A stretch of 64,000 nt of DNA from Prevotella sp. (lineage in GTDB: Bacteria > Bacteroidota > Bacteroidia > Bacteroidales > Bacteroidaceae): assembly GCA_017471465.1 (NCBI GenBank), contig JAFUTI010000004.1, forward strand, positions 28,135 to 92,134, read 5' to 3'. Below the pieces are notes generated by a model. It worked only from the letters and a program-made list of their open reading frames with translations, was not told the origin of the DNA and did no database searches. Of this stretch, positions 16,149-30,032 are shown one piece after another. The translations under genes and the position numbers were made by a program. Numbering within the stretch: position 1 is the first letter of the stretch; each line of letters starts with the position of its first letter.

Positions 16149-16179
16149 TTGGCCATTTCAATTTTTCTTCCTATCTTTG
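16149..16179 (+). promoter_or_regulatory. Promoter of the 16203 gene
   Basis: TTG at 16149-16151 and TATCTTTG at 16172-16179 are 20 bases apart. This places the transcript start near 16186 and favours the ATG at 16203 over an upstream one. Confidence 0.65.
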
Positions 16180-16202
16180 CCCAAAAGAAAAAACGTTTTT
16201 AT

Positions 16203-16682
16203 ATGGTTAATATAGCGAACCCGATTTACGACATCGTATTCAAGTATCTCATGGAGGACGATGCCGATATGAAACACATCGTCCACCGCCTGTTAATGGC
16301 TTCTACTGATGCCGACGTACGTCAGGATATGAATGTCGAAGACGAATATTTCGCAGCCATTGAGAAACGTGACACGGAAATTATGCTTCGTGACCGCAAA
16401 CTCGCTGAACAGCAGGTCCAGCTGAGTGAACAGCAGGTCCAGCTGAATGAACAGCAGGTCCAGCTGAGTGAACAGCAGGTCCAGCTGAGTGAACAGCAGG
16501 TCCAGCTGAGTGAACAGCAAGTCCAATTGAGTGAACAGCAGGTCCAGCTGAGTGAACAGCAAAAACTATTAGGCTATTCTATTCAGATAATGCAGGATAA
16601 TGGATTGTCGTTAGAGGCCATTTCAGCAAAATTGGGGAAAAGCGTTGAAGAATTGAAGGAACTCTTACAACATCTTTCGTGA
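16203..16682 (+). CDS. Internally deleted PD-(D/E)XK nuclease/transposase-family protein with QVQLSEQ repeats
   Basis: 159 residues. The N-terminus (MVNIANPIYDIVFKYLMED) is the start of a widespread Bacteroidales PD-(D/E)XK nuclease family, and the segment DVRQDMNVEDEYFAAIEKRD with the helical end EAISAKLGKSVEELKELL is its C-terminal region. The roughly 200 residues that carry the nuclease core are missing; the two ends are joined near residue 22. In their place lies a coiled-coil of seven to eight EQQVQLS heptads. It keeps a good promoter and an open frame, so it may be expressed, but nuclease activity is not expected. This could be decay or a surviving regulatory derivative. Confidence 0.7.
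   Translation: MVNIANPIYDIVFKYLMEDDADMKHIVHRLLMASTDADVRQDMNVEDEYFAAIEKRDTEIMLRDRKLAEQQVQLSEQQVQLNEQQVQLSEQQVQLSEQQVQLSEQQVQLSEQQVQLSEQQKLLGYSIQIMQDNGLSLEAISAKLGKSVEELKELLQHLS
16407..16562 (+). repeat. 21-base tandem repeat inside the 16203 gene
   Basis: Seven full copies and part of an eighth of a 21-base unit (GAACAGCAGGTCCAGCTGAG plus T) encode EQQVQLS. Copies are nearly identical, so copy number could change in frame. Confidence 0.9.
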
Positions 16683-16721: not shown

Positions 16722-17744
16722 TTATCCAAACTTCTCCGCGCCCCTCCATTTTCGGACACGCCGCTTGACAGAATTCATGATGAACGACCAGTTGCCGTAG
16801 CGGATATTCAGAACCAGTTCTTCGAAGGAGCGTCCGACCTTCGTCAGTGGATAGCCCCAGCCCTGAGCCTTATAGAAGCGCTTCCAATAGCCCACTTCCT
16901 CAATCACGTACCTGGGATGACGCAGAGGAAAATCGATGTCATAGCGTTTCATAGTAAACAGCTGTTTTAGGCGACGGGGTAAGGTGCGGAAGGCCGAATA
17001 GTGTGTAGAGTCCTCCGAGGCACCAACATTATTAATCATATTCTTACAGGGCACAATGGCCATGGCCGAGTTGAAAAGCATAGTCGCCCAGAAGACGCTC
17101 TCGAATTGAGGGTGCCCCGTCTCGCGATGGTCGCGACACATTTTGACAAAGCTCTTCCTATAGCCGCGCTGCTTGATGAGCGCCTCAAGCTGTCGCATAC
17201 TGAACGCATCGTCAAGGAATGCGTATTCCTTATCCCATTGGTTAACGACCCTGCGCCACGACGCCCAGCCCCAGATGCTGAAGGCAGAAGTGAAGAAGTA
17301 GTCGTAGGGAATGTCGGGCGTCACCTCGTCGACGTTGAAGCCCGCCACCATCGAGATGCGCTCGTCGTGCTCGTAGCGGTCGAGCATCTCCTTACAGAAC
17401 GGGAAGAACGACTGCGACGGTACCACGTCGTCCTCAAGCACCATACACTTGTCGGCCAGCGAGAAAGCCCACTGATGGGACGTATATCCAGCTATCATAC
17501 AGCCTAAGTTACGCTCCTGATAGTTTCGGTGTACCTCACACTCCCAGTCGATGTTCTCGTCGCTGGCAATCTGTCGGCAGGCTTCTATACCCGCCATATC
17601 GCGCTCGCCACGGGGACCGTCCTGAAAGAGGAACAACCGCGAGGGACGCGCCTTCCTTACTTCGTCGAATACCTGCTGAAACGTATCAGAACGGGTGAAG
17701 AACAACATCAATACTGCGATATCAACTTGAGCTGCTTTTTTCAT
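16722..17744 (-). CDS. Glycosyltransferase (GT-A fold, HlpA-like)
   Basis: 340 residues. The first half resembles nucleotide-sugar transferases: VLMLFFTRSDTFQQVF, then RNLGC and the metal-binding LEDDVVPS. The middle has WGWASWRRV, which I associate with the Bacteroidota 'hemolytic protein HlpA-like' glycosyltransferases. Sugar and acceptor are unknown. It is the last gene of the phosphonate-glycan operon, 13 bases behind the preceding glycosyltransferase. Confidence 0.75.
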   Translation of the reverse strand: MKKAAQVDIAVLMLFFTRSDTFQQVFDEVRKARPSRLFLFQDGPRGERDMAGIEACRQIASDENIDWECEVHRNYQERNLGCMIAGYTSHQWAFSLADKCMVLEDDVVPSQSFFPFCKEMLDRYEHDERISMVAGFNVDEVTPDIPYDYFFTSAFSIWGWASWRRVVNQWDKEYAFLDDAFSMRQLEALIKQRGYRKSFVKMCRDHRETGHPQFESVFWATMLFNSAMAIVPCKNMINNVGASEDSTHYSAFRTLPRRLKQLFTMKRYDIDFPLRHPRYVIEEVGYWKRFYKAQGWGYPLTKVGRSFEELVLNIRYGNWSFIMNSVKRRVRKWRGAEKFG

Positions 17745-17757
17745 GTTTTCTTTTTTA

Positions 17758-18594
17758 TTAGTTTTGCTTTGGTGCTATAGAGGGAAAGAATGTGTATAGG
17801 TAGGAACTGATCCAATAGCGTAAAGCGCTGTTCCAACCTTTGTAAGTCCGCAGATAGCGGAAACCATAGCGGGGCGAGTTCTTTGGGCTATGCAAGTTCT
17901 TCCACCGCTTCTTAAAACTCGCAATACCAGAGTAAGGTGTTTCGGTATGATTGTCAACCACGCCCACGTAGCGAGGCGTCAACAGCACACTGAAGCCCTG
18001 CTTCTGGACTCTGTAACCGTAATCATGGTCACCGAATGCATGACGATACCCTCGGTCAATCATTCCTACGGCCTTGTAGACCTGATAGGGGATAAGCACC
18101 AAGTTGCCGTTCATCGTCACCACCTTCTGATAACTGCCATCCGGGACTAACCCCTTGTTGTTTTCATCCCCGCCGCCGTATGAACAGCAACCCTGATGGT
18201 CACAGAAGGCGCCCGTCACGACGCAGCGTTCGCCATTGTCATCCATCGACTTGAATAGCGTCTGTAAGGCATCGGGGTACAACTCGGAATCATCATTATA
18301 CCAGAGGAAATAGTCGTAGCCGACACCCGACTCAACAGCCTTCTCCCACGCCATCAGCATACCATGTCCCCAATAGAGACCGCCATCACCCTTGAACAGT
18401 CTGACAGCCGGGAACTCACTACCCACGCTTTCAGACGTCCCGTCCGTAGAACCGTCGTCTACCAGATAGACATCAAACGCATAGCCCGGACCTAACCTGT
18501 CGATGGCTGCATACAATGTGCGCAGGCTGACAAGCGTCATCTCTCTCCTGTTGAACACCGTCAGTAAGACGGCTGTCTTCGTCACTTCCGCCAT
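17758..18594 (-). CDS. Family 2 glycosyltransferase
   Basis: 278 residues with a classic GT2 N-terminus: VFNRREMTLVSLRTL, VDDGSTDGT, and the DXD-type YNDDS near residue 110. The later FGDHDYGYR resembles rhamnosyl/galactofuranosyl transferase-like members. It probably adds a sugar to a lipid-linked glycan on the inner face of the membrane. It overlaps licD by 13 bases. Confidence 0.88.
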   Translation of the reverse strand: MAEVTKTAVLLTVFNRREMTLVSLRTLYAAIDRLGPGYAFDVYLVDDGSTDGTSESVGSEFPAVRLFKGDGGLYWGHGMLMAWEKAVESGVGYDYFLWYNDDSELYPDALQTLFKSMDDNGERCVVTGAFCDHQGCCSYGGGDENNKGLVPDGSYQKVVTMNGNLVLIPYQVYKAVGMIDRGYRHAFGDHDYGYRVQKQGFSVLLTPRYVGVVDNHTETPYSGIASFKKRWKNLHSPKNSPRYGFRYLRTYKGWNSALRYWISSYLYTFFPSIAPKQN

Positions 18595-19520
18595 GAATCC
18601 TTTTTCTGTTTGAAATAATCGGTATAAGCCATATCGGGGTCGAAGTAAATGTCATTGGAATGCCATTTGCCCCGCTCCTCAACAGGCGGGAAGGCCATAT
18701 AGTCGCCATATATGTTTCTGAGCACCTTGTCGTAGTTTGCCGGAACAGGAACCGTCATGTTCTCGAAAGGCAGATAGACCGTCTCGTCCAAATCAGCAGC
18801 CTCACACCAGTAGCGTGTGATGAAATACATAGGATGTGTCAGAATCGTCAGCCGCTTAGCGGTAGCACTATACTTCCTGAGGTTCTTGTCATACCAGCCT
18901 ACCACGGTCTCGTAGGGTACCAGTTTGCAGAACGTATGGGCCATCACGCTACGATACAGGCGCCGCAACAGATTGTTCTGCTGTTTAGGGCGGTATAGTG
19001 ACACCAGACTGACGAGGGTTTCCTTAACCAGCATCTGGCGCTTGAACGCTGCGCCATCCACATAGCCGTCCATCACAAAGACGTCAATATAAATGCCGTG
19101 ATTGTAGTCTGGCGACTCGTGAGCCAGGATGTGCCCCGTTGTCAACGAGTTTCGCAAGCGGGCATAGCCCTGGCAGAAGTAGCGTCTGTCAGACAAATCC
19201 GTCTGTAGGAAATACGGATGGCGGAACTCTGTGGCGGCTATGGCACGAAGCTTCTCAAACTCCGGCCGCGTCATACACACGTCAATGTCGTCATCCCAGG
19301 GAATAAAGCCACGGTGCCTGACGGCTCCCAATAATGTACCAGCAAAGGCAAAGACCTTGATGTCGTGCTTCTTGCATACCGCCAGCAACTGGTAAAGCAG
19401 ATCCATCTCAATGGCCCATATCCGTTTCTGCCTTGACGACACTGTATACTCGCACCTGACCTCTTCCTGAAGGAAGCTATCGTCAAGCGGCATGGTTATC
19501 TTCTCTTTAATACTGTTCAT
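18582..19520 (-). CDS. LicD family phosphotransferase
   Basis: 312 residues. Residues 61-80 carry the LicD nucleotidyltransferase-fold core (GTLLGAVRH, then PWDDDID). The family transfers phosphocholine, or in phosphonate clusters a phosphonate, from its CMP-activated form onto a sugar. Here it directly follows the phosphonate genes (4-base overlap), so transfer of CMP-activated hydroxyethylphosphonate is the best guess. It could instead attach another phospho-group. Confidence 0.88.
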   Translation of the reverse strand: MNSIKEKITMPLDDSFLQEEVRCEYTVSSRQKRIWAIEMDLLYQLLAVCKKHDIKVFAFAGTLLGAVRHRGFIPWDDDIDVCMTRPEFEKLRAIAATEFRHPYFLQTDLSDRRYFCQGYARLRNSLTTGHILAHESPDYNHGIYIDVFVMDGYVDGAAFKRQMLVKETLVSLVSLYRPKQQNNLLRRLYRSVMAHTFCKLVPYETVVGWYDKNLRKYSATAKRLTILTHPMYFITRYWCEAADLDETVYLPFENMTVPVPANYDKVLRNIYGDYMAFPPVEERGKWHSNDIYFDPDMAYTDYFKQKKDSWRK

Positions 19521-20623
19521 AGCGGTTTGTCAATGATGGTATGGTACAATCCCATGATGGCCTCTGCGTCGAGTTCTACGGGGTTGTTACGCAGACGGAT
19601 AGGGTTGACGGAAGTGCTCAGCGTGTGTAATTCTTCATCCCGCTTTTCCGACGATACAGGATTCTGCAGGCCCAGCACTTTCATCATTTCGCGGAAACAG
19701 CCGATGGCCGACGGAACGTCGGCTACCTGCATAGCCTGTGCTATTTCTTTGAAAGTAGCCTGTAGATAGCCGGTTCCCCGACGGTCGATACAACGGTCGG
19801 GATGACTCTGCATATACTGCCAGATTTCTGGTAAACAGACTGCTACGGCATGGCCGTGTGGCAATTTGTAGAGCGACGTAATCTTATAGCTGAAAGCGTG
19901 GGGCGCCGTCGTCTGCGTGATACAGATGGCACGGCCGGCCAGGTTGGCTGCGGCCATCACTTGCCAGGCTGCCTCATCGGAATTATCGAAGATGTAGTCG
20001 CGCCACCAGTGCATAATGGTTGTCACGGCTTTTTCCGAAAGACATCTGCTTTCGTCCGTACTGTTCACCGACCACCACGACTCTATGCCCTGACATAAGG
20101 CATCCATCATCGTACACTTTTTCTGATAGACCGGCAGCGTCTTCAGCACCTGTGGTTCCAAGATGGCCACGTTGGGTATGATGCTCTCATGCGTCACACT
20201 TTGTTTCTTTCCACCATAATATATTACGGCGAAGCGGGTCGACTCACTGCCCGTGCCGGCTGTGGTAGGAATAGCAATGAGCTGCACGCCCGTGTCGTGG
20301 TATTCTTGTTCCAGGAAAAGCTTGTCTGCCGGCATCCGGCAATACAGCTTGATACACTTTGCCACGTCGATAGTACTTCCGCCTCCAACGGCGAGAATGG
20401 TGTCACACTGCTCTTGATTGAACAGTTCAACACCCTTACAGACGTCCTCGTACAGCGGATTGGGAGTAAACTGGTCGAACTTGACAAAAGGCACGCCTAT
20501 GCTCTCGACGGTCGTCTTAATACTTAGGAACGGGAATGAGCCGTCGCAAACCAGCATAACCTTCCTGCTGTCTGCCACTACGCCGTTCAGGTGCTCTATA
20601 CCGTTCAAAATCTGTTGTGCCAT
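19517..20623 (-). CDS. Iron-containing alcohol dehydrogenase, probable phosphonoacetaldehyde reductase
   Basis: 368 residues of the group III Fe-alcohol dehydrogenase fold: GGGSTIDVAK (80-89) binds NAD(P), IPTTAGTGSE follows, and metal ligands are likely Asp174 (MMDALCQ), His242 (APHAF) and His256 (LPHGH). In phosphonate clusters this type reduces phosphonoacetaldehyde to 2-hydroxyethylphosphonate. No aminotransferase for 2-aminoethylphosphonate is present, which supports that assignment. It starts one base after the decarboxylase stop. Confidence 0.82.
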   Translation of the reverse strand: MAQQILNGIEHLNGVVADSRKVMLVCDGSFPFLSIKTTVESIGVPFVKFDQFTPNPLYEDVCKGVELFNQEQCDTILAVGGGSTIDVAKCIKLYCRMPADKLFLEQEYHDTGVQLIAIPTTAGTGSESTRFAVIYYGGKKQSVTHESIIPNVAILEPQVLKTLPVYQKKCTMMDALCQGIESWWSVNSTDESRCLSEKAVTTIMHWWRDYIFDNSDEAAWQVMAAANLAGRAICITQTTAPHAFSYKITSLYKLPHGHAVAVCLPEIWQYMQSHPDRCIDRRGTGYLQATFKEIAQAMQVADVPSAIGCFREMMKVLGLQNPVSSEKRDEELHTLSTSVNPIRLRNNPVELDAEAIMGLYHTIIDKPL

Positions 20624-20624
20624 A

Positions 20625-21752
20625 TCAGTCCTCCAAAAAATCCATCAGGGCTTCCTTGTTCTGTACAGGCGTGGTCGTGGGACGGCCCAAATCCTTGCGG
20701 TTGCCCTTCTTCACACACACCTGTAGCAGCATCGGCCCTGCCTGTTGCTTTACGTCGTCCAACCGTGCCGTCAGTTCCTCCAGTGTACTGACGCTATAGG
20801 CATGGGCATAGCCCACGGCCTTGGCTATGGCGGGCAAGTCGATGTCGAGACCTACCGTCGGCTGGCCGCCAACAGAGTCGTGAGCACCATTATTAAAGAC
20901 GACGTGAACATAATTCCGAGGGCGCTTGCTGGCCACGATAGCCAAACCGCCCATGTGCATAATGGCTGCACCGTCGCCGTCGAAGCACCAGACGCGGCGC
21001 TCTGGCTTCTCCATAGCGATACCCAATGCTATCTGACTGGCGTGACCCATGGAGCCAACCGTCAGGAAGTCGCGCTCGTGACCTTCGCCTTTCGCCGTAC
21101 GGTATTCGAAGAGTTCGCGGCTGATCATGCCCGTTGTTGACACTATCACGTCCCGTGGGGCTAATGCCGCCGCCACGGTCTGAATGGCGTCTTCACGTGT
21201 CATCGTCAAGTCGTTAAGCACGACATTCTGTAGCGCATAGCTATCGAACGTGTCCTTTTCAACGACTAGCGCAAAAACCTCACCTGTCTCGTGCATATAG
21301 TCGACGGCCGCCTTGACCTGCGCTGCCGCCTGAACCTCGTCCTTGCTAAGCACCTCATACCTGACGCCCATCGTCTCCAGCAGTGTCAGCGTCACCTTCC
21401 CCTGTTTCACGTGCTGCGGCTCGTCGTGTACGCCGGGACGTCCGCGCCAGCCTATCAGCAGCAGGACGGGAATGTTGTACACATCCTTGTCGGTCAGCGA
21501 AGCCAGCGGGTTAATGATGTTTCCCTCGCCTGAGTTCTGCATATAGACGACGGGAATCTGGCGCGTGGCCAGATAGTGCCCTGCGGCCACACCCAGTGCA
21601 CCGCCCTCGTTGGCAGCGATAATGTTATGCGTGGCATCGGCATGGTCTGTGATGTAGGCACAGAGTTGCTTCAACAGGGAGTCGGGCACGCCGGCATAGA
21701 AGTTTATGCCGTTGGATGCCAGGGTATCGTAGAAGAATGAAGGACGTATCAT
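20625..21752 (-). CDS. ppd: Phosphonopyruvate decarboxylase
   Basis: 375 residues, thiamine diphosphate-dependent. Conserved points are the catalytic-type ANEGGA (Glu49), QNSGEGN, and the cofactor motif [11 protein letters not shown] (259-269) ending at FNNGAHDS. It converts phosphonopyruvate to phosphonoacetaldehyde, pulling the unfavourable PEP mutase step forward. The long upstream open frame belongs to the previous gene's other frame; the ATG at 21752 overlaps the pepM stop by four bases. Confidence 0.93.
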
Positions 21753-23056
21753 TTCGTGCCGGGAATAAGTTCTAAGATTTCCTTGATGGGCATACATAGA
21801 CTGTTGGCTTCGTATGAGCGGCCGTTGGCCAGGATAGACTCGGCACACTGTACCATTGCCGGGTAGGCAGCGCGCAGCAAGTGGTTGGCATAGATGACGA
21901 CGTTGACGCCCCAAGATGCCAGTTCGTCCTCGGTAATCTGGTTGTAAGTCGTAGGCACTACCACAATGGGCACAGAGGCGTTCTTAGCTCGCAATCGCTG
22001 GCAGAACTCCTTGATGTCCTCGCCCGTCTGTTCTTTGCTGTGAATCATGATGCCGTCGGCCCCTGCCTCGATATAGGCCAAGGCGCGCTCCATAGCATCG
22101 TCAATGCCCTTGCCGGCAATGAGGCTCTCAATACGGGCTATCAGCATGAAGTCGCTGGTTATCTGTGCCCGTTTGCCTGAACGTATTTTCTCGCAGAAAC
22201 CCTCTATGGTGTCTTGTTCCTGTTTCACCTCCGTGCCGAAGAGAGAGTTCTTCTTCAGTCCTACTTTGTCCTCGATGATAATCGCCGAGATGCCCAGTCG
22301 TTCCAGCGTGCGCACGGTAAAGGCCAGATGTTCTGGCTTGCCCCCCGTATCGCCGTCGAAGATGACGGGCTTGGTGGTCACCTCCAAAGCATCGTTCAGG
22401 TCGTGCAGTCGTGTTGTCAGGTCAACGGCCTCGATGTCGGGCTTGCCTTTTGACGTCGAGTCGGTTAGCGAACTGGCCCACATACCGTCGAACTCGTGTT
22501 TCATATTGTTAATCATTACCGATGTATTCTCGATAATCAGACCTGTCAGTCCGCTGTGCGACTCGCAGAATCGCACAATCTTCTTGGCACCGATGAGCCG
22601 GCGGAGACGCTTCAGACGGACGTCGGGCGTCGTGCCGATTTCCTTCAGACGCTCATTCAGCATCGTCGAGGATATACCTTTGGTGTAGGGCACGTCTATG
22701 ACCTTGCCGCCCCATTCCGCCAGCTTCTCGATAATCTGCTGACGGGTCTTTGCCTGTACACCCTGTTTCCAGTCGTCGCCGTGAACCACGTAGTCTGGTT
22801 TGATTTTCTCCAGATTCGGGCGGTAGTCAAGCGTCGTCTGGGGTATCACCTCTGAAACGCCTTTCAGGTCACTGACTATCAGTGAGCGCTGTTCGTAGTT
22901 CAAGTAGGGCAGCCGCTTGTAGCTGGCAATGGCCGCGTCGGTCAGTACGCCCACGATGACGCGTCCGTATTTCTGGGCTTCATGCAGGATGTTGAGATGT
23001 CCCGGGTGTATGATGTCGGCACTCATGCCGACGTAAACTATCTTTTCTTTTTCCAT
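21749..23056 (-). CDS. pepM: Bifunctional cytidylyltransferase-phosphoenolpyruvate mutase
   Basis: 435 residues in two parts. Residues 1-140 are a nucleotidyltransferase of the CTP-transfer type with HPGH (17-20) and later GISSTM. Residues 150-435 are PEP mutase with the magnesium-binding DGDTGG (234-239) and the hallmark EDK-x5-NS (262-271), which distinguishes true PEP mutases from isocitrate-lyase relatives. The mutase makes the carbon-phosphorus bond of phosphonopyruvate; the front domain may make the CMP-phosphonate. The layout resembles AepX in the Bacteroides fragilis polysaccharide B locus. Confidence 0.93.
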
Positions 23057-23075
23057 TTATATTCTGTTCTTACTG

Positions 23076-24242
23076 TTATTTGTTCTTCTTCAAGCTTTTT
23101 AACCAGCGCTTCTTCTCCTTCAGAAAGTTGTAGACGTCGCAGCCTTTCAGATAGAGGAGGTCCCCAAGTTTATCCCATAGGCTGTAGCGTCGTGGTTTCA
23201 TCTGCTGCTTGATGTTGAGACAGTTGCGCAGCGACTCAACGGGCGTCTCGAAGAACAGGTGGTGGAGCGCCTGCCTCTGCTTCTCCAACAGACGCTCGTA
23301 AAGGGCGTCGTCGGCATCGAGGCGGCGCATCAGCTGAAGCACTTCCTCTGACGTACCGACATTACACTCGTCGATAATCAGTTCGCCGTGGGTCACCTCG
23401 TCGCGGTTCATAATGGCCAATGTACCTAACGACACGGCCTCTGCCACGGAGTTGCCACGGATGGGGCGTCCGCCAATCTTTACGAAGTATTTTGAGTCGT
23501 AGATGGCCATCAGGTTGTCACTGATTTTCGGCTTGTGCAGGTGGATGGCGTAGCCTGCTTCCTGAATAGGTAGGAACTGAGGCGGCACCTTGTCACGGTC
23601 CTTGGCCACGGAGTTGATTTCCACAAACACGCCATCGCGCTTCGAAGCGCGTCTTACCTTGGAATGAATGATGCGCTCCAGGGTGTCACGCCCCACGAAG
23701 GTATAGGGGAAGTCCACCTCACCTAAGCCGTTGGCCACTATACCGCGTGCCATTTGGTTCAGCGTGATGTCGTAGCCGAAGCGTGCCTTGCCCATAGCCA
23801 TATTTGCCTCACCAATCATATAGGCAAAGAGGGTCTTAGGGTACTGCTTCACCACCTCCGTAGGCAGACAGACATTGACGGAAATGACGACATCATACTG
23901 CCCCCAGTCTACGTCATGGCAGTCGACGGAGAAGTCGCCATTGGCATGGTCGGTCTCCAACTGCCATTTTTCATAGCCCGGCACCTGGTTCAGCGGCTTC
24001 GTCTTCAGCAGCGGCAGCATCCAGACGATATGAGGGATTACCTTTTTGTAAATCTGCGTTTCGGGGGCTGGCTCTTCCTTGACAATATAGAAGTCGGCTC
24101 CCAGCTCGCTCACCAGACCAATAGGTCCCACCCGCATCATTGAGCTGAACAGTACGTTGGCTGCCGATTTCTCGGTGACAGGACAAACGTACAAATCCTG
24201 ATAGACATCCTGCTTCAGAAGCGCTATTCTCAAATCCTCCAT
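23076..24242 (-). CDS. Glycosyltransferase-like protein heading the phosphonate operon
   Basis: 388 residues, no signal peptide. The C-terminal half shows a pattern like GT-B enzymes: RPIRGNSVAEAVSLGTLAIMNRDE, where a glycine-rich turn and Glu precede a nucleotide-sugar pocket. The front half (MRVGPIGLVSELGADFYIVKE) could be the acceptor domain. I do not recognise a named family, so the call rests on this motif and the neighbourhood. The ATG at 24242 follows a TACCTTTG promoter. pepM starts 19 bases after its stop. Confidence 0.6.
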   Translation of the reverse strand: MEDLRIALLKQDVYQDLYVCPVTEKSAANVLFSSMMRVGPIGLVSELGADFYIVKEEPAPETQIYKKVIPHIVWMLPLLKTKPLNQVPGYEKWQLETDHANGDFSVDCHDVDWGQYDVVISVNVCLPTEVVKQYPKTLFAYMIGEANMAMGKARFGYDITLNQMARGIVANGLGEVDFPYTFVGRDTLERIIHSKVRRASKRDGVFVEINSVAKDRDKVPPQFLPIQEAGYAIHLHKPKISDNLMAIYDSKYFVKIGGRPIRGNSVAEAVSLGTLAIMNRDEVTHGELIIDECNVGTSEEVLQLMRRLDADDALYERLLEKQRQALHHLFFETPVESLRNCLNIKQQMKPRRYSLWDKLGDLLYLKGCDVYNFLKEKKRWLKSLKKNK

Positions 24243-24264
24243 GAGCTTTTTCGCATTTTTGCTG

Positions 24265-24303
24265 CAAAGGTATAAATTTATTATGAAATATTTTGTATCT
24301 TTG
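24265..24303. promoter_or_regulatory. Divergent promoters of the glycan operon and the acyltransferase
   Basis: The minus-strand TACCTTTG (24272-24265) faces the glycosyltransferase-like gene at 24242. The plus-strand TATCTTTG (24296-24303) faces the acyltransferase gene at 24337. The two -7 elements lie about 30 bases apart and share one short AT-rich control region. Confidence 0.6.
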
Positions 24304-24336
24304 CACCAAAAATACTTAAAAACAGAATACATACGT

Positions 24337-25431
24337 ATGGAAACAGTAGCAAAGAAGCCCCGGTTGGAATGGTTGGACGCTCTCAGAGGGTTCACGATGA
24401 TTCTTGTTGTAGCCTATCACGTAGCACTTATCGGATTCTCCGAGCAGCACAATTTGTCGTCTTCAATGCGCTTCCTCGTCCTTTTCCGTATGCCGCTGTT
24501 CTTCTTCGTCAGTGGTTTCCTGGCTTACAAGGCAGGGCTGGTGTGGAATATGGGCACGCTCAAAAGTCTGCTGCTGAAGAAAATCAGGGTGCAGACCATA
24601 CCAACCGTCGTCTTCTTCTTCTTTGGCGTAGCTATCCTGGGCGGCTATTTTCTGCCCACGACACTGAAATGGTTAGCACTGCCGACGAAGGGCGGCTACT
24701 GGTTCACCATTGTGCTGCTTTATATGTTCATCGTCTACTACCTGTTCTGCTACGTTGAGGAGTTACTGAAGAAGCATTTCCCGAAGATGCCTTCGTGGCT
24801 GCCCATAGCCGTGCTCTTCGTCATCTCGCTGGTCTGCTACGACACCTGCTACCAGCCTCATTACTTCAGTTGGGCCCAGGGGAGAAAGGGGCCTGGCAAT
24901 GAGTTCATGAACTACAGCAGCTTCGGGCAGCTCTTCATGTACTTCCCTTATTTCGTCTATGGCAACGCCGTGCGCCGCTACTGGGACCAGGCCCAGCGCC
25001 TCATGGACTCCAAATGGTTTTATCCTGCACTTGTCATGCTGGCCATGTATGCTTGGCTCGACTCACAGAAATGGCATTGGCTACACGCTGCCTGGGCCGT
25101 CATACCACTGACGTTGGCACGCATCTCGCTGTTGACGATAGTCTTTATGTACTTCCGCCACTACCACCAGTACTTTACGCAGCGGACGGTCATCGGCGCC
25201 AGCTTGCAGTATATCGGCCGACGTACGCTCGACATCTACCTTATCCACTTCCTTTTCATGCCCAACCTGCCTACCATCGGCACCTACTTCAACCAGTATC
25301 GCCACAATTTCGCCATTGACACCACGCTCTCCCTGCTGATAGCCCTCATCGTCATTGGCTTCAGCATCATAGCGTCGAACATCCTTCGCGTCAGTCCGTT
25401 CTTCAAGAAGTGGCTCTTCGGAAGGGGATAA
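24337..25431 (+). CDS. Acyltransferase 3 family membrane protein
   Basis: 364 residues with about ten transmembrane helices. The N-terminal signature LEWLDALRGFTMILVVAYH contains the family's catalytic-type His, and later come FVSGFLAYKAG and IGRRTLDIYLIH. The family O-acylates (often O-acetylates) sugars of surface polysaccharides. The ATG at 24337 follows the promoter; longer frames upstream overlap the promoter. It sits inside the glycan locus on the opposite strand. Confidence 0.88.
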   Translation: METVAKKPRLEWLDALRGFTMILVVAYHVALIGFSEQHNLSSSMRFLVLFRMPLFFFVSGFLAYKAGLVWNMGTLKSLLLKKIRVQTIPTVVFFFFGVAILGGYFLPTTLKWLALPTKGGYWFTIVLLYMFIVYYLFCYVEELLKKHFPKMPSWLPIAVLFVISLVCYDTCYQPHYFSWAQGRKGPGNEFMNYSSFGQLFMYFPYFVYGNAVRRYWDQAQRLMDSKWFYPALVMLAMYAWLDSQKWHWLHAAWAVIPLTLARISLLTIVFMYFRHYHQYFTQRTVIGASLQYIGRRTLDIYLIHFLFMPNLPTIGTYFNQYRHNFAIDTTLSLLIALIVIGFSIIASNILRVSPFFKKWLFGRG

Positions 25432-25438
25432 GCAGCCC

Positions 25439-26429
25439 TCACCAATAGCAGTTCCCCTCCACCTTGTCGGAGTCCTTGGGTTTGGTGGTGGCGTCAGGTC
25501 TTATCCAATGCTCGTTCATCAGGTTGACGTAGAAGCCCTTGGGCAGTCCCCATCGCTCTACACCGTGCATCGGATTAAGCCAGCGATGGCCTGTGATGCC
25601 AAACAGCAACTGGCTGACGCCACCAAGATGGATGGCCTGCTTACCTTGGCGCTTGGCATAGGCTGCTAACGGAAAACCATAGGCTCCGCATCCTAATATG
25701 CAGACGTCGTACTCGATCTTGTCCATTTCTTGCTCCATCCAATGTAAGGCAGAAAACCAGTCGTCATATCCACATGATTCACTATTATTCCCATAGCTTT
25801 GTACGGCTTTGATGACATGGAGCTCTTTAAAAGTAGGAAGCACATTGTCGGAGAACAACAACCGCCGCTTTTCATATTGCCGGCGTATCAGTTCATCAAA
25901 AGGATGAACGACAAGCACCTTCCTGCCTTCCAAAGCCCTGCTCCAAGGCTTTTTGGCAAGCCAGGGTTCTAAACAGGGGAGGGCTACCTTGTAGGCATTC
26001 TTTAATAGATGGCTGACGGCAATCTCTTCATTCAGCCAGCTTCCCAGGATGTCTACCTGCTGCGAGTCTTCAAGCATCATCTCGCTGAAGCGGTATAGAT
26101 GTTCATTGTCTATGGGGAAGAAACCTGCTGCATGCTTCATCTGCATCAATATGTGCTTGTTCCACCACCAGGGACCATTCTTTCGCGTCATATACCCATG
26201 CATCTCCCCGATGTTCCGTAATGCCCAAATAGTTGAACACGGTCGTCAGTTCGTTGGCACCGTATCTGGCTATCATGCAAGGTTTGCCACTTGCCAGCAG
26301 TTCGTAGATTCTGTCTCCAGCCCTGTCAGGGTCTGACTCAAAGGTGAGCAACGATGTCTTCGGGTACCAGTATTTAGTATAAATACGACGTCCTGCCGTT
26401 AGGGCCTTATGGTAGAAATTCAAACTCAT
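25439..26429 (-). pseudogene. Frameshifted probable GT-D-like glycosyltransferase
   Basis: Two overlapping frames together make one protein. The first (26429 to about 26220) gives GKPCMIARYGANEL and then NYLGI. The second (from about 26220 to 25439) continues GEMHGYMTRKNGPWWWN, AGFFPID, MLEDSQQVDILGSWL and GRKVLVVHPF. The order matches a polysaccharide-locus family with a GT-D-like start that I recognise only loosely. A one-base indel, perhaps in the G run near 26208-26211, breaks it. Decay, phase variation or a sequencing error are all possible. It overlaps the flippase stop by four bases. Confidence 0.7.
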
Positions 26430-27886
26430 TGTGCGTGCTTTTTAAAAGGGAATTTTACTTTGCTTTCGAAGAAATCGAGACTCTCACGGAATATGGCCGA
26501 ACCTAAGAGCCACAGTACCAGAACGTAGAGCGATGCCACAAACAGCACCTTGGCAGCAAACCTGATGTAGATGTTCGCTATGGGCTCCGTAATGACCTGC
26601 GCCGAAAGCACCAATGCTACAGTAATGAAAAAATAGGGCGAAATGTCCTTCACGACTTCATATAGCGTAAGACCTATCCAGCTTCGCGACAGCCGATACC
26701 ACACCCAAAACCAGCCGACAGCTATTCCTACATACACCTTAATCATCATCCCCATCCCGTAGGGCGCTGAGACGAAGACCGCCGCCAACTGAACCGCTCC
26801 TAAAACGGTGTGACACCACATGAAGCGTGAAGACTGGCCATGGCTGACCATGTAATAGGAAAACAGGTTGGATAGCGGGTAGAAAGCCCCCATCACGCAC
26901 AGCCACTGCAGGATGATGGCACTGTCAAGCCACTTCTCGCCAAGCAGGATGACAATAAACTCGTGTGACACCAGTGCCAGGCCAAGCATAGCGGGGAAAC
27001 TGACAAAGGCGGTGAAGCGCAGCAGTTTCCTGAAGATACGTTTCTGGCGTTCGGGTTCGTCGTCGGTTTTAGCCAGTACTGGCTGAGCTATGCCGCTGAG
27101 CATGTTGTTGATGAGCGACCACCCCATATTGTTCCACTTGCTGGCTTGTGTGTAATTGCCAACCACACTAGCCGGGAATTTACGTCCCAGAATGACGGAA
27201 AACATATTCGTGTTGAATATCACCACCAGACTGGTGACCATCAGCTTGCTGCTGAAGCCTATCATCTCGCGTACCGGAGAGAAATCCACAGGCAGCGTGG
27301 GATGCCAGCGGGCATACCAGAAGTTAAGACCCGTCGTGACGCCTACATATACAAGAGACTGGGTCGCTATGCCCCAGTAGGCAAAGTCCGCTGCGGCCAT
27401 ACACACCCCCACGATTCCCGACAGTAGAAGACCGACGAAGTTCACGATGGCCGTCTCGCGAACCTTCATGTTCCGGAAGAGGATGGCCCGTGGCGCAATG
27501 CCAAGACTTGAGATGAAAAAGCCAAGAAAGATAAAGCGCGCCAAGGGCACAAGCCGTGGCTCGTGATAGAAGCGCGCTATAAGTGGGGTACAGAGAGCGA
27601 AAATGACATAAAGGAGAAGGCTCGTCAGCGTGCAAGTCCAGAACACGGCGTTATAATCCTTGTGACTCGCCTCCTTGCGCCTGTTCAGAGCTGAGATGAA
27701 CCCGCCCTCCTGCAGTGAGTTTGCCACAAGGGAGAAGATGGTGAGCATACCCACCAGACCATAATCCTCGGTGCTCAGCAACCGTGCCAGAAAGATGCCA
27801 AATACAAGGTTCAGCATCTGCTGCAACACGTTGCTTAGTCCACCCCAGAACAGACCTTTAGCGGTCTTCTCCTTCAATGTGTCCAT
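26426..27886 (-). CDS. Wzx-type oligosaccharide flippase (WzxC-like)
   Basis: 486 residues, about 12-14 helices, of the MOP superfamily. The start KGLFWGGLSNVLQQMLNLV, then LSTEDYGLVGM and later FSVILGRKFPASVVGNY fit the lipopolysaccharide/colanic acid exporter branch. It would flip lipid-linked glycan repeat units across the inner membrane. It lies directly downstream of metG and upstream of the broken glycosyltransferase. Confidence 0.9.
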   Translation of the reverse strand: MDTLKEKTAKGLFWGGLSNVLQQMLNLVFGIFLARLLSTEDYGLVGMLTIFSLVANSLQEGGFISALNRRKEASHKDYNAVFWTCTLTSLLLYVIFALCTPLIARFYHEPRLVPLARFIFLGFFISSLGIAPRAILFRNMKVRETAIVNFVGLLLSGIVGVCMAAADFAYWGIATQSLVYVGVTTGLNFWYARWHPTLPVDFSPVREMIGFSSKLMVTSLVVIFNTNMFSVILGRKFPASVVGNYTQASKWNNMGWSLINNMLSGIAQPVLAKTDDEPERQKRIFRKLLRFTAFVSFPAMLGLALVSHEFIVILLGEKWLDSAIILQWLCVMGAFYPLSNLFSYYMVSHGQSSRFMWCHTVLGAVQLAAVFVSAPYGMGMMIKVYVGIAVGWFWVWYRLSRSWIGLTLYEVVKDISPYFFITVALVLSAQVITEPIANIYIRFAAKVLFVASLYVLVLWLLGSAIFRESLDFFESKVKFPFKKHAQ

Positions 27887-27926: not shown

Positions 27927-30032
27927 TCATCCCACCTGACAGCCGGGCTTGACGTCCTTCGTCGTGGTGACTACGCTCAGGCTCTCGTCGGCATCGACGG
28001 CCGAGAGAATCATGCCCTGGCTCTCGATGCCCATCATCGTGCGCGGCGCGAAGTTGGCCACGAAGAGGATGCGCTTGCCCACGAGCGCCGACGGGTCGTC
28101 GTAGAACTGGGCGATGCCCGAGCAGATGGTGCGGTCGGTGCCTGAACCGTCATCGATGGTGAACTGCAGGAGCTTCTTCGACTTCTTCACCTTTTGGCAG
28201 TCCTTCACCAAGCCCACACGGATGTCGAGCTTCTCAAAGTCCTCGAAGCTAACCGTTTCCTTGATGTCAGCAGGCTTGAAGGCGGCAGCCTCATTGGCTT
28301 TCTTGGTGGCTTCCAGCTTGTCGAGCTGCTTCTGTATGACGTCGTCCTCAATCTTCTCGAACAGCAGCTGCGGCTCGCCTAACTGGTGGCCAGCCTGCAA
28401 CAGGTCGGTGCTGCCCAGCTGCTCCCACTCAAAGCTGTCGATGTTAAGCATCTCGCGGAGTTTTTTACTCGAGAACGGCAGGAACGGCTCGAAGGCAATA
28501 GCGAGGTTGGCCGTCAGCTGCAGACAGATGTTCAGGATGGTTTCGCAGCGCTTCGGGTCGGTCTTCCACACTTTCCACGGCTCGCAGTCGGTGATGTACT
28601 TGTTGCCGATGCGGGCCAGGTTCATGGCCTCAAACTGTGCGTCGCGGAACTTGAACTGCTCCAGCAGGTTTTCCACCTTGGCCTTCACGTCCTTGAACTC
28701 CTCCAGGGCTTGACGGTCAACGTCGGTCAGTTCGCCGCAGGCGGGAACGACGCCGTTCCAGTATTTCTTCGTCAGCTGCAGGGCACGGTTGACAAAATTG
28801 CCATAGACGGCCACCAGCTCGTTGTTGTTGCGGTCCTGGAAGTCCTTCCACGTGAAGTTGTTGTCCTTGGTCTCAGGGGCATTGGCGGTCAGCACGTAGC
28901 GCAGCACATCCTGCTTGCCGGGCATGTCCTCCAGGTATTCGTGCAGCCAGACGGCCCAGTTCCTTGAGGTCGAAATCTTGTCGTTCTCCAGGTTCAGGAA
29001 CTCGTTGGCGGGCACGTTGTCGGGCATGATGAAGCCTCTCCCGGCCCCTCCGAGGGAGGGGAGCTTGTTTGCGTCGTTCCAGGCCTTCATCATCGTGGGG
29101 AAGATGATGCAGTGGAACACGATGTTGTCCTTGCCGATGAAGTGTACCAGACGGGTGTCCTCGTCCTGCCACCACTTGCGCCAGTCACCCCATTTCTCTG
29201 GCTCCTTCTCACACAGTTCTACCGTGTTCGACACATAGCCGATGGGGGCGTCGAACCATACGTAGAGCACCTTGCCGTCGGCTCCTTCCACGGGCACGGG
29301 GATACCCCAGTCCAGGTCGCGAGTCATGGCGCGGGGCTGCAGGTCCATGTCGAGCCACGACTTGCACTGGCCGTAGACGTTAGGACGCCACTCTTTGTGC
29401 TCCTCCAAGATCCACTTCTTCAACCAGTCCTGATACTCGTTCAGAGGCAGATACCAGTTCTTGGTCTTCTTCAGTACTGGAGTAGAACCGCTGATAGTAG
29501 ACTTCGGGTTGATGAGCTCTGTAGGACTCAAGTCACGTCCGCACTTCTCACACTGGTCGCCATAGGCTCCCTCATTGTGGCAGTAAGGACACTCACCTAC
29601 GACATAACGGTCGGCCAAAAACTGTTTGGCTTCCTCGTCGTAGAGCTGCTCGGTGGTCTCCTCAGTCAGTTTGCCCTCGTCGTAGAGTTTCTTAAACCAC
29701 TCTGCAGCAAACTTATGGTGAGTCTCGGAGGTGGTGCGGCTATAGATATCAAAAGATATTCCAAACTCCTCGAAAGAGTCCTTGATCATCTTGTGATAAC
29801 GGTCAACTACATCCTGCGGAGTGATACCCTCCTTACGGGCACGAACCGTAATGGGCACACCGTGCTCGTCGGAACCGCCAATGAACATGACGTCGCGCTT
29901 CTTCAGACGCAGATATCTCACGTAAATGTCTGCCGGTACGTAGACGCCGGCCAGATGTCCGATGTGCACACCACCGTTGGCGTATGGTAGAGCCGACGTA
30001 ACGGTTATTCTCTTGTATTTTTTCTCTTCCAT
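27927..30032 (-). CDS. metG: Methionine-tRNA ligase
   Basis: 701 residues. The N-terminal part has HIGH as HIGHLAG, a zinc module with two cysteine pairs (CPYC, CEKC) and the KMSKS loop as KISTS. The C-terminal EMAP/tRNA-binding domain (about 595-701) has KLDIRVGLV. It charges tRNA-Met. Between MMKAWND and [11 protein letters not shown] there is an extra stretch ([10 protein letters not shown]) encoded by a GC-rich hairpin. The ATG at 30032 follows a TAACTTTG promoter at 30064-30057. Confidence 0.96.
29034..29080. repeat. GC-rich hairpin insertion inside metG
   Basis: On the minus strand CCCCTCC and GGAGGGG pair across a CTC loop, followed by CCGGGAGAGG. The segment adds about ten residues in frame at a position where MetG proteins normally have a short turn. 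It resembles the small GC-rich repeats scattered in Prevotella genomes; that link is from memory. Confidence 0.5.

What the first reader, a model, noticed from the sequence alone, without database searches (positions are those of the whole stretch)
16722..27886. Glycan locus predicted to carry 2-hydroxyethylphosphonate
Seen: pepM with EDK-x5-NS, phosphonopyruvate decarboxylase, an Fe-alcohol dehydrogenase, LicD and two or three glycosyltransferases follow each other with overlaps or short gaps; acyltransferase and Wzx genes are next to them. Known: PepM and decarboxylase give phosphonoacetaldehyde; Fe-ADHs in such clusters reduce it to 2-hydroxyethylphosphonate, whereas the B. fragilis polysaccharide B locus uses an aminotransferase to make 2-aminoethylphosphonate. 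Inference: this strain decorates a surface glycan with hydroxyethylphosphonate rather than aminoethylphosphonate.
Basis: partly seen in the sequence, partly recalled or inferred. Interest (0 to 1): 0.78.

Follow-up and report, generated by a model that had tools for sequence, protein, structure and literature searches.

The report
Hydroxyethylphosphonate genes in protein-glycan locus
A Prevotella-like bacterium carries a set of genes that should make hydroxyethylphosphonate, activate it with CTP and attach it to a sugar chain, and these genes sit in what looks like the locus that builds sugar chains for the bacterium's own exported proteins.

Summary
pepM, phosphonopyruvate decarboxylase, Fe-type alcohol dehydrogenase, licD and a GT2 gene form a tightly coupled minus-strand operon (23056-17758).

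In two-domain CyTase-PepM loci, 60 of 60 with a dehydrogenase keep the HxGH motif and show no PntC cytidylyltransferase nearby; 58 of 62 with AEP transaminase have lost the second His, and in the first set all 42 such loci have PntC, separate or fused. B. fragilis S82 is of that type.

The dehydrogenase has the metal and substrate residues of a crystallised sulfoacetaldehyde reductase. No AEP transaminase above cut-off was found in the (63% complete) genome. HEP rather than AEP is well supported.

The glycan is most likely the protein O-glycan: metG-wzx synteny and a Wzx scoring near the O-glycosylation flippase match LFG loci; a relative carries another PepM lineage between the same flanking genes. 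Phosphonate on the glycan itself is inferred, not shown.

The parts
27927..30032 (-). metG (methionyl-tRNA synthetase), flanking marker of LFG loci
   Evidence: about 40 nt from wzx; same neighbour at the B. fragilis wzx, 72% identity; LFG organisation described in PMC12871550 (passages)
26426..27886 (-). wzx, O-glycosylation-type flippase
   Evidence: NF058658 664 bits, cut-off 720; B. fragilis homologue beside metG 783; five flippases from other pepM loci 287-340, a second B. fragilis one 362, that of L138 604
25439..26429 (-). GT-D-like glycosyltransferase gene, split over two frames (26429-26103 and 26203-25439)
   Evidence: PF22882 23.2 bits, below the cut-off of 27, on the C-terminal piece; N-terminal piece without family
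24241..25431 (+). acyltransferase (PF01757)
   Evidence: 80 bits; relatives of 69-83% identity in the HEP loci L137, L138, L171
23076..24245 (-). GT_B: conserved protein without family match, probably a glycosyltransferase
   Evidence: relatives in 15 other genomes of 301; no Pfam above cut-off, no PDB sequence match; the glycosyltransferase label is by context
21749..23056 (-). CyTase-PepM fusion: N-terminal cytidylyltransferase (residues 5-140, HPGH and GISST intact) and C-terminal PEP mutase ([10 protein letters not shown])
20625..21752 (-). phosphonopyruvate decarboxylase
   Evidence: TIGR03297 515.5 bits (scanned from 21746); start from sequence
19517..20623 (-). Fe/Zn-type dehydrogenase, predicted phosphonoacetaldehyde reductase (D174, Q178, H242, H256; T238, Y246)
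   Evidence: PF00465; closest PDB chain 6jko = sulfoacetaldehyde reductase BkTauF
18582..19520 (-). LicD-family transferase, predicted HEP-phosphonotransferase
   Evidence: PF04991 132.6 bits; DDDID motif (sequence)
17758..18594 (-). GT2 glycosyltransferase
   Evidence: PF00535 45.9 bits; relative 56% in L137
16722..17744 (-). GT_A: conserved last protein of the locus, probably a glycosyltransferase
   Evidence: in 31 of 60 genus genomes, within 12 kb of wzx in 24 of these 31; no Pfam family above cut-off

Best explanation
The locus makes CMP-activated 2-hydroxyethylphosphonate and puts it on the outer part of the protein O-glycan (LFG-type locus). Steps: (1) the PepM domain turns phosphoenolpyruvate into phosphonopyruvate; (2) the decarboxylase gives phosphonoacetaldehyde; (3) the Fe/Zn dehydrogenase reduces it to HEP; (4) the CyTase domain fused to PepM makes CMP-HEP, as in Fom1; (5) LicD transfers HEP from CMP-HEP to a sugar of the lipid-linked glycan built by the locus's glycosyltransferases; (6) the O-glycosylation-type Wzx flips the glycan, which is joined to exported proteins. 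Enzyme identities for steps 1 and 2 are shown at family level. Steps 3 and 4 rest on family, residue and co-occurrence evidence. Steps 5 and 6 are inferred from gene content and synteny.
For: Families and operon coupling. CyTase domain: best PDB match 5x3d, E 2.3e-56, 62% identical to that segment. HEP CyTase function of the Fom1 domain: PMC6697681 (passages and section 6). Motif rule: HxGH intact in 60 of 60 dehydrogenase loci, broken in 58 of 62 AEPT loci; the 4 exceptions, all from one other family of the phylum, show no PntC. No PntC within the distance tested (4.5 to 5 kb, same strand) in 24 of 24 dehydrogenase loci of the first set and 36 of 36 of the named set. Genome level: AEP transaminase above cut-off in 1 of 24 two-domain dehydrogenase genomes, and there beside a second, HPGL-type pepM; none in the window genome. 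Dehydrogenase: metal and substrate residues of BkTauF. LFG: metG-wzx neighbourhood, Wzx score, best B. fragilis match (47%) next to its own metG. A second genome (G1124) has a different PepM lineage with ADH and LicD between the same rplM-rpsI and wzx-metG flanks.
Against: The dehydrogenase scores 141 bits with the phosphonate-cluster model TIGR03405, below its cut-off of 424. The Wzx score 664 is below the strict cut-off of 720. LicD is found in only 16 of 60 HEP-type stretches, against 40 of 58 AEP-type ones with broken motif, so LicD as HEP transferase is not a general rule. The genome is only 63% complete, so absence of a transaminase is weak for it alone. In the genus metG lies within 15 kb of wzx in only 16 of 53 genomes that have both. 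The last two proteins of the locus had no match (tblastn, E 1e-4) in the 19.9 kb fetched around B. fragilis wzx. In L138, one of the supporting LFG-type loci, no ppd was found. The GT-D-like gene is split. Triple fusions keep HxGH although a PntC domain is fused. No chemistry was measured.
Confidence: 0.72

Rival explanations
1. HEP is made and CMP-activated as proposed, but is placed on a capsule, exopolysaccharide or lipid and not on protein O-glycans.
For: Phosphonates are known on B. fragilis polysaccharide B and on actinobacterial phosphonoglycans (recalled; cited in PMC8931226, passages and reference list). Of 15 other pepM stretches in which a flippase was found, 13 have one of only 22-32% identity to this Wzx; the two others are L138 (43%) and L171 (30% over a cut-off piece of a 44% one).
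Against: This wzx scores 664 with the O-glycosylation flippase model, against 287-362 for six flippases of other loci, and is directly preceded by metG as in B. fragilis. No polymerase family was hit among the ten proteins scanned.
Confidence: 0.22
2. The product is AEP: an unlinked transaminase converts phosphonoacetaldehyde and the dehydrogenase does something else.
For: One dehydrogenase-type genome with a triple-fusion PepM (G290) also has a transaminase above cut-off, 80 kb away; the window genome is 63% complete.
Against: Best transaminase match in the window genome is 41.6 bits against a cut-off of 360.8. 23 of 24 two-domain dehydrogenase genomes have none above cut-off. All 42 AEPT loci of the first set with broken HxGH have PntC: 38 separate, 3 fused to the decarboxylase and 1 to the transaminase; none is seen here. 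The dehydrogenase gene is coupled to ppd and licD.
Confidence: 0.05
3. HEP is only an intermediate and is oxidised further (hydroxymethyl- or methylphosphonate) before attachment.
For: HEP is the precursor of methylphosphonate in marine microbes (PMC9381506, passages).
Against: No oxygenase family was hit among the ten proteins of the locus scanned; HepD and MpnS use oxygen (recalled), while the closest named relatives are mostly rumen and gut MAGs (titles); the intact CyTase would activate HEP itself. The rest of the genome was not searched for these enzymes.
Confidence: 0.03
4. The dehydrogenase acts on an unrelated aldehyde and the pathway stops at phosphonoacetaldehyde or a free phosphonate.
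For: Fe-ADHs are broad (recalled); the score with the dedicated model is below its cut-off.
Against: The dehydrogenase follows pepM and ppd in 40 of 41 dehydrogenase loci of the first set and carries sulfoacetaldehyde-reductase residues.
Confidence: 0.05

Closest known systems
Fom1 of fosfomycin biosynthesis (CyTase-PepM fusion that makes CMP-HEP)
   Same: Domain order, 62% identity of the CyTase segment, HPGH and GISST motifs, a reductase step to HEP
   Different: Here the next genes are LicD and glycosyltransferases, not the methylation and epoxidation enzymes of fosfomycin (recalled)
B. fragilis polysaccharide B-type AEP loci (pepM, ppd, AEPT, PntC; S82 locus L240; that L240 is the polysaccharide B locus was not checked)
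   Same: CyTase-PepM fusion, decarboxylase
   Different: There AEPT and a separate PntC, and HxGH reads HPGL; here dehydrogenase, no PntC, HPGH
PntC phosphonyl-tailoring pathway (PMC6697681)
   Same: Logic of CMP-activation followed by LicD-like transfer to a glycan
   Different: Uses a PF12804 CyTase for AEP; here a PF01467 domain, predicted for HEP
LFG protein O-glycosylation loci of Bacteroides and Tannerella
   Same: metG-wzx start, variable glycosyltransferase genes, Wzx family
   Different: Modifications listed in the passages read do not include phosphonate (PMC12871550); phosphonate genes are part of the locus here
Proposed phosphonylated glycoproteins of marine Prochlorococcus (PMC8931226, abstract and passages)
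   Same: Phosphonate genes linked to protein O-glycosylation
   Different: Different phylum; a hypothesis there too
BkTauF sulfoacetaldehyde reductase (6jko, PMC6616044, passages)
   Same: Metal ligands D-Q-H-H and substrate residues T257/F265 (T238/Y246 here)
   Different: Its substrate is the sulfonate analogue

Membership tests
Fom1-type CyTase-PepM fusion | PF01467 domain N-terminal to a PEP mutase with EDKxxxxxNS | tested here: met
Fom1-type CyTase-PepM fusion | Intact HxGH and GISST motifs and Fom1-like neighbouring positions | tested here: met
   HPGH, GISST; S32, S65, Y66, Q121, W135 as in the 5x3d segment; that the motif is catalytic, and that 5x3d is Fom1, is recalled
Fom1-type CyTase-PepM fusion | CMP-HEP formed in vitro | not testable with these tools
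   needs assay
Phosphonoacetaldehyde reductase (PhpC/FomC type) | NCBIfam phosphonate Fe-ADH model TIGR03405 above cut-off | tested here: not met
   141.4 bits, cut-off 423.7; filed as 'works like', not as a member of that model's family
Phosphonoacetaldehyde reductase (PhpC/FomC type) | Active-site residues known for a C2 aldehyde with an anionic group | tested here: met
   D174, Q178, H242, H256, T238, Y246 match BkTauF (F265 is Y here, as in a number of its homologues); BkTauF F252 is I233 here
AEP (polysaccharide B-type) locus | AEP transaminase next to pepM-ppd or in the genome | tested here: not met
   genome 63% complete
AEP (polysaccharide B-type) locus | PF12804 PntC near or fused | tested here: not met
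LFG protein O-glycosylation locus | metG followed by wzx on the same strand | tested here: met
   about 40 nt apart
LFG protein O-glycosylation locus | Wzx of the O-glycosylation family | tested here: inconclusive
   664 bits against a cut-off of 720; six flippases of other loci 287-362, B. fragilis homologue 783
LFG protein O-glycosylation locus | Two terminal glycosyltransferases homologous across species | tested here: inconclusive
   GT_A is within 12 kb of wzx in 24 of 31 genus genomes that have it, but neither GT2 nor GT_A matched the B. fragilis stretch fetched
LFG protein O-glycosylation locus | Loss of the locus truncates the protein glycan | not testable with these tools
   needs a mutant
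LicD family | PF04991 above cut-off | tested here: met
   132.6 bits, cut-off 22.6

The most novel reading that the evidence does not exclude
The CyTase domain fused to PepM is a pathway switch that can be read from sequence. In two-domain fusions an intact HxGH beside a dehydrogenase means HEP is made and activated by the fusion itself. A leucine, isoleucine or tyrosine in place of the second His marks a domain that no longer activates and is kept for another role (for example structure or CTP sensing), while a separate or fused PntC activates AEP; this includes B. fragilis. In Prevotella-like bacteria the HEP version has been recruited, by at least two PepM lineages, into the protein O-glycosylation locus, so these bacteria would carry hydroxyethylphosphonate on their exported glycoproteins.
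Probability: 0.55. Interest if true: 0.75.

Novelty: new variant of a known kind. Interest (0 to 1): 0.6.

Why it matters
Bacteroidota O-glycans decorate exported proteins, yet in the passages read the reported modifications do not include phosphonate. If true, a C-P bond sits on glycoproteins of gut or rumen bacteria, where it should resist phosphatases. The HxGH rule would let anyone predict HEP or AEP from one gene and would explain why AEP loci of the Bacteroides type carry two cytidylyltransferases. It also raises a testable question: what does a PepM-fused CyTase without its second histidine do?

Tried and rejected
CyTase similarity to Fom1 alone does not prove HEP: AEP loci carry the same fusion (broken-motif AEPT rows 46-59% identical to the Fom1 segment, dehydrogenase rows 60-72%); it becomes informative only with the motif and the PntC pattern. 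The triple fusions (PntC-CyTase-PepM, 19 rows, 17 with dehydrogenase) do not fit the simple rule: 17 read HSGH, 1 HFGH, 1 LGAH, although PntC is fused, and GISST is lost. Independent-pair test: only 3 independent pairs on supported branches (2 agree, 1 does not differ), not significant. Recombination between the two halves of pepM: in a CyTase-only tree (HxGH columns removed) the 61 broken rows are one clade, while in the mutase tree the ADH and AEPT labels each need at least 3 changes (4 in the best tree, the AEPT/ADH contrast of L133-L136 and the triple fusions included); forcing the 61 rows into one clade there is only just rejected (p 0.044), so this stays a suggestion. Rows with neither gene found were not used in the ADH/AEPT counts: 24 of 111 (22 two-domain, 2 triple) and 11 of 63. 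GT_A and GT_B gave no Pfam family above cut-off and no PDB sequence match; their folds were not searched. Promoter and terminator scan no better than shuffles. Literature: no paper stating the motif rule, or phosphonate on LFG glycans, showed in the listings or in the passages; the library lacks most subscription journals.
Full report
WHAT IS THERE. The window lies in a 2.4-Mb draft genome, 63% complete. From 30032 down to 16722 run metG, wzx, a GT-D-like gene split over two frames, an acyltransferase (on the plus strand), a conserved protein without family (GT_B), CyTase-PepM, phosphonopyruvate decarboxylase, an Fe/Zn-type dehydrogenase, LicD, GT2 and a second protein without family (GT_A); all but the acyltransferase are on the minus strand. 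From pepM to the GT2 gene, neighbouring genes overlap by 4 to 13 nt or, between ppd and the dehydrogenase, lie one base apart. Beyond lie rplM and rpsI (named from their translations).

PepM is 435 aa, and residues 12-135 match the cytidylyltransferase family PF01467. The best PDB match of this part is 5x3d (E 2.3e-56), which I recall as the CyTase domain of Fom1; the tool names the chain only as a phosphoenolpyruvate phosphomutase. Rice et al. (PMC6697681, passages and section 6) report that Fom1's fused CyTase turns HEP into CMP-HEP, that 23.6% of 1485 PEP mutases carry a PF01467 fusion, 33% a PF12804 fusion and 2.9% both, and that two PF12804 enzymes (PntC) prefer AEP.

A RULE ACROSS LOCI. 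pepM relatives were found in 50 of 301 family genomes, 18 of 393 order genomes, 7 of 395 phylum genomes and 38 of 299 genus genomes (the window genome is in each). I fetched the neighbourhoods of the full-length matches (four partial matches were left out). 111 loci gave a full PepM: 24 two-domain with dehydrogenase, 46 two-domain with AEP transaminase, 22 two-domain with neither found, and 19 triple fusions (17 with dehydrogenase). Dehydrogenase two-domain loci: 24 of 24 keep both His of HxGH and none has a PntC within 4.5 kb on the same strand. AEPT two-domain loci: 42 of 46 have HPGL, HPGI or HPGY, and all 42 have PntC: 38 as a separate gene, 3 fused to the decarboxylase (L066, L164, L167; PF12804) and 1 fused to the transaminase (L129). 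The 4 AEPT loci with intact HHGH (L133-L136, one other family of the phylum) show no PntC. Of the 22 rows with neither gene, 19 have HPGL and 3 an intact motif. A second set from a named collection (80 loci, 17 dropped as duplicates of the first) agrees: 36 dehydrogenase loci all HPGH or HHGH without PntC, 16 AEPT loci all HPGL or HPGI, 11 with neither (10 HPGL or HPGI, 1 HPGH). Three of those 16 AEPT loci showed no PntC in the stretch (L224, L235, L245), two of them close to a contig end. Bacteroides fragilis S82 (L240) is AEPT, PntC, HPGL. Together: intact in 60 of 60 dehydrogenase loci and in 4 of 62 AEPT loci (Fisher p 1.7e-30). The rows are related, so the p-value overstates independence. 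Positions that are Fom1-like in 59 or 60 of 60 dehydrogenase loci (S32, S65, Y66, L96, Q121, W135) are changed in most of the 58 broken-motif AEPT loci.

HOW INDEPENDENT IT IS. On a tree of the mutase part alone the ADH and AEPT labels each need at least 3 changes. On a tree of the CyTase part without the HxGH columns, the broken type is one clade. Holding the 61 broken rows together in the mutase tree is rejected only just (p 0.044). Independent pairs: 3, of which 2 agree and 1 does not differ. I read this as mutase halves being exchanged between AEP and HEP loci while the CyTase stays with its pathway, but the support is thin.

THE DEHYDROGENASE. Its closest PDB chain by sequence is 6jko, listed under the molecule name methanol dehydrogenase. 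PMC6616044 (passages) identifies 6JKO as the sulfoacetaldehyde reductase BkTauF, with zinc ligands D192, Q196, H261, H275; T257A and F265A almost abolish activity, and F265 is Tyr in a number of homologues. By the alignment these are D174, Q178, H242, H256, T238 and Y246 here; the third residue studied, F252 (28% activity when changed to Ala), is I233. Among 76 dehydrogenases of HEP-type and triple-fusion loci D174, H242, H256 and Y246 are in all, T238 is in at least 97%, Q178 is Q in 65 and H in 11. Sulfoacetaldehyde is the sulfonate analogue of phosphonoacetaldehyde. Against: the dedicated model TIGR03405 is met at 141 bits only (cut-off 424).

NO TRANSAMINASE. In the window genome the AEPT model gives 41.6 bits at best (cut-off 360.8). 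Of 24 two-domain dehydrogenase genomes one (G1330) has an AEPT above cut-off, beside its second, HPGL-type pepM; one more (G421) has a 127-bit match below cut-off. In the 50 genomes, 31 have an AEPT above cut-off; by my reading of that table these are 30 of the 33 two-domain broken-motif genomes and one triple-fusion genome (G290).

WHICH GLYCAN. PMC12871550 (passages) describes LFG loci of Bacteroides and related genera as metG, then wzx, then variable genes, ending in two conserved glycosyltransferases; the rare modifications listed there include phosphate but not phosphonate. Here metG is about 40 nt from wzx. Wzx scores 664 with the O-glycosylation flippase model (cut-off 720); the B. fragilis homologue beside its metG scores 783, five flippases of other pepM loci 287-340, and another B. 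fragilis one 362. Wzx relatives occur in 57 of 60 genus genomes and GT_A in 31 of 60, within 12 kb of each other in 24 of those 31 (19 on the same strand); metG lies within 15 kb of wzx in 16 of 53 genomes that have both. GT2 and GT_A had no match in the B. fragilis stretch. In G1124 a triple-fusion PepM (54% identical) with dehydrogenase and LicD lies between rplM-rpsI and wzx-metG, the same flanks as in the window; G1096 has a 93% PepM with dehydrogenase, but no ppd found, beside a Wzx of 604 bits and GT_A. Phosphonate on protein O-glycans has been proposed for marine bacteria (PMC8931226, abstract and passages).

WHAT IS NOT SHOWN. No chemistry. LicD as transferase is by family and coupling only; LicD is in 16 of 60 HEP-type and 40 of 58 broken-motif AEP-type stretches, whose lengths differ. 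That HxGH loss stops activity is recalled family knowledge, not tested.

Noticed in passing
window 25439-26429 (-): A GT-D-like glycosyltransferase gene between wzx and the acyltransferase is split over two reading frames: a frameshift or an assembly error.
   Followed up: partly
window 16149-16682 (+), repeat 16406-16561: Short ORF with 7.4 copies of a 21-bp tandem repeat coding for EQQVQLS heptads, between the ribosomal operon and the glycan locus.
   Followed up: no
L080:10538-12034 and L081:7627-9090: A Fom1-type CyTase domain follows a radical SAM-SPASM domain in one protein (Pfam checked for L080 only), next to CyTase-PepM and ppd, with neither ADH nor AEPT found: a possible third branch of the pathway.
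   Followed up: no
L067, L074 and 17 other triple fusions: PntC-CyTase-PepM triple fusions, 17 of 19 with ADH, mostly keep HSGH but have lost the GISST motif, so which of the two domains activates the phosphonate is unclear.
   Followed up: partly
L137 and L152 (genome G1330): One genome carries both an HEP-type and an AEP-type locus.
   Followed up: no
L133-L136: AEP-type loci with an intact HHGH CyTase and no PntC found, which suggests that this CyTase may act on AEP.
   Followed up: no
L138 (genome G1096): A 93% identical CyTase-PepM directly next to the dehydrogenase, with no ppd found in the fetched stretch.
   Followed up: no
L261: A two-domain CyTase-PepM locus with ADH on a contig labelled Woesearchaeota archaeon (67% identity): recent transfer or a mis-binned contig.
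   Followed up: no
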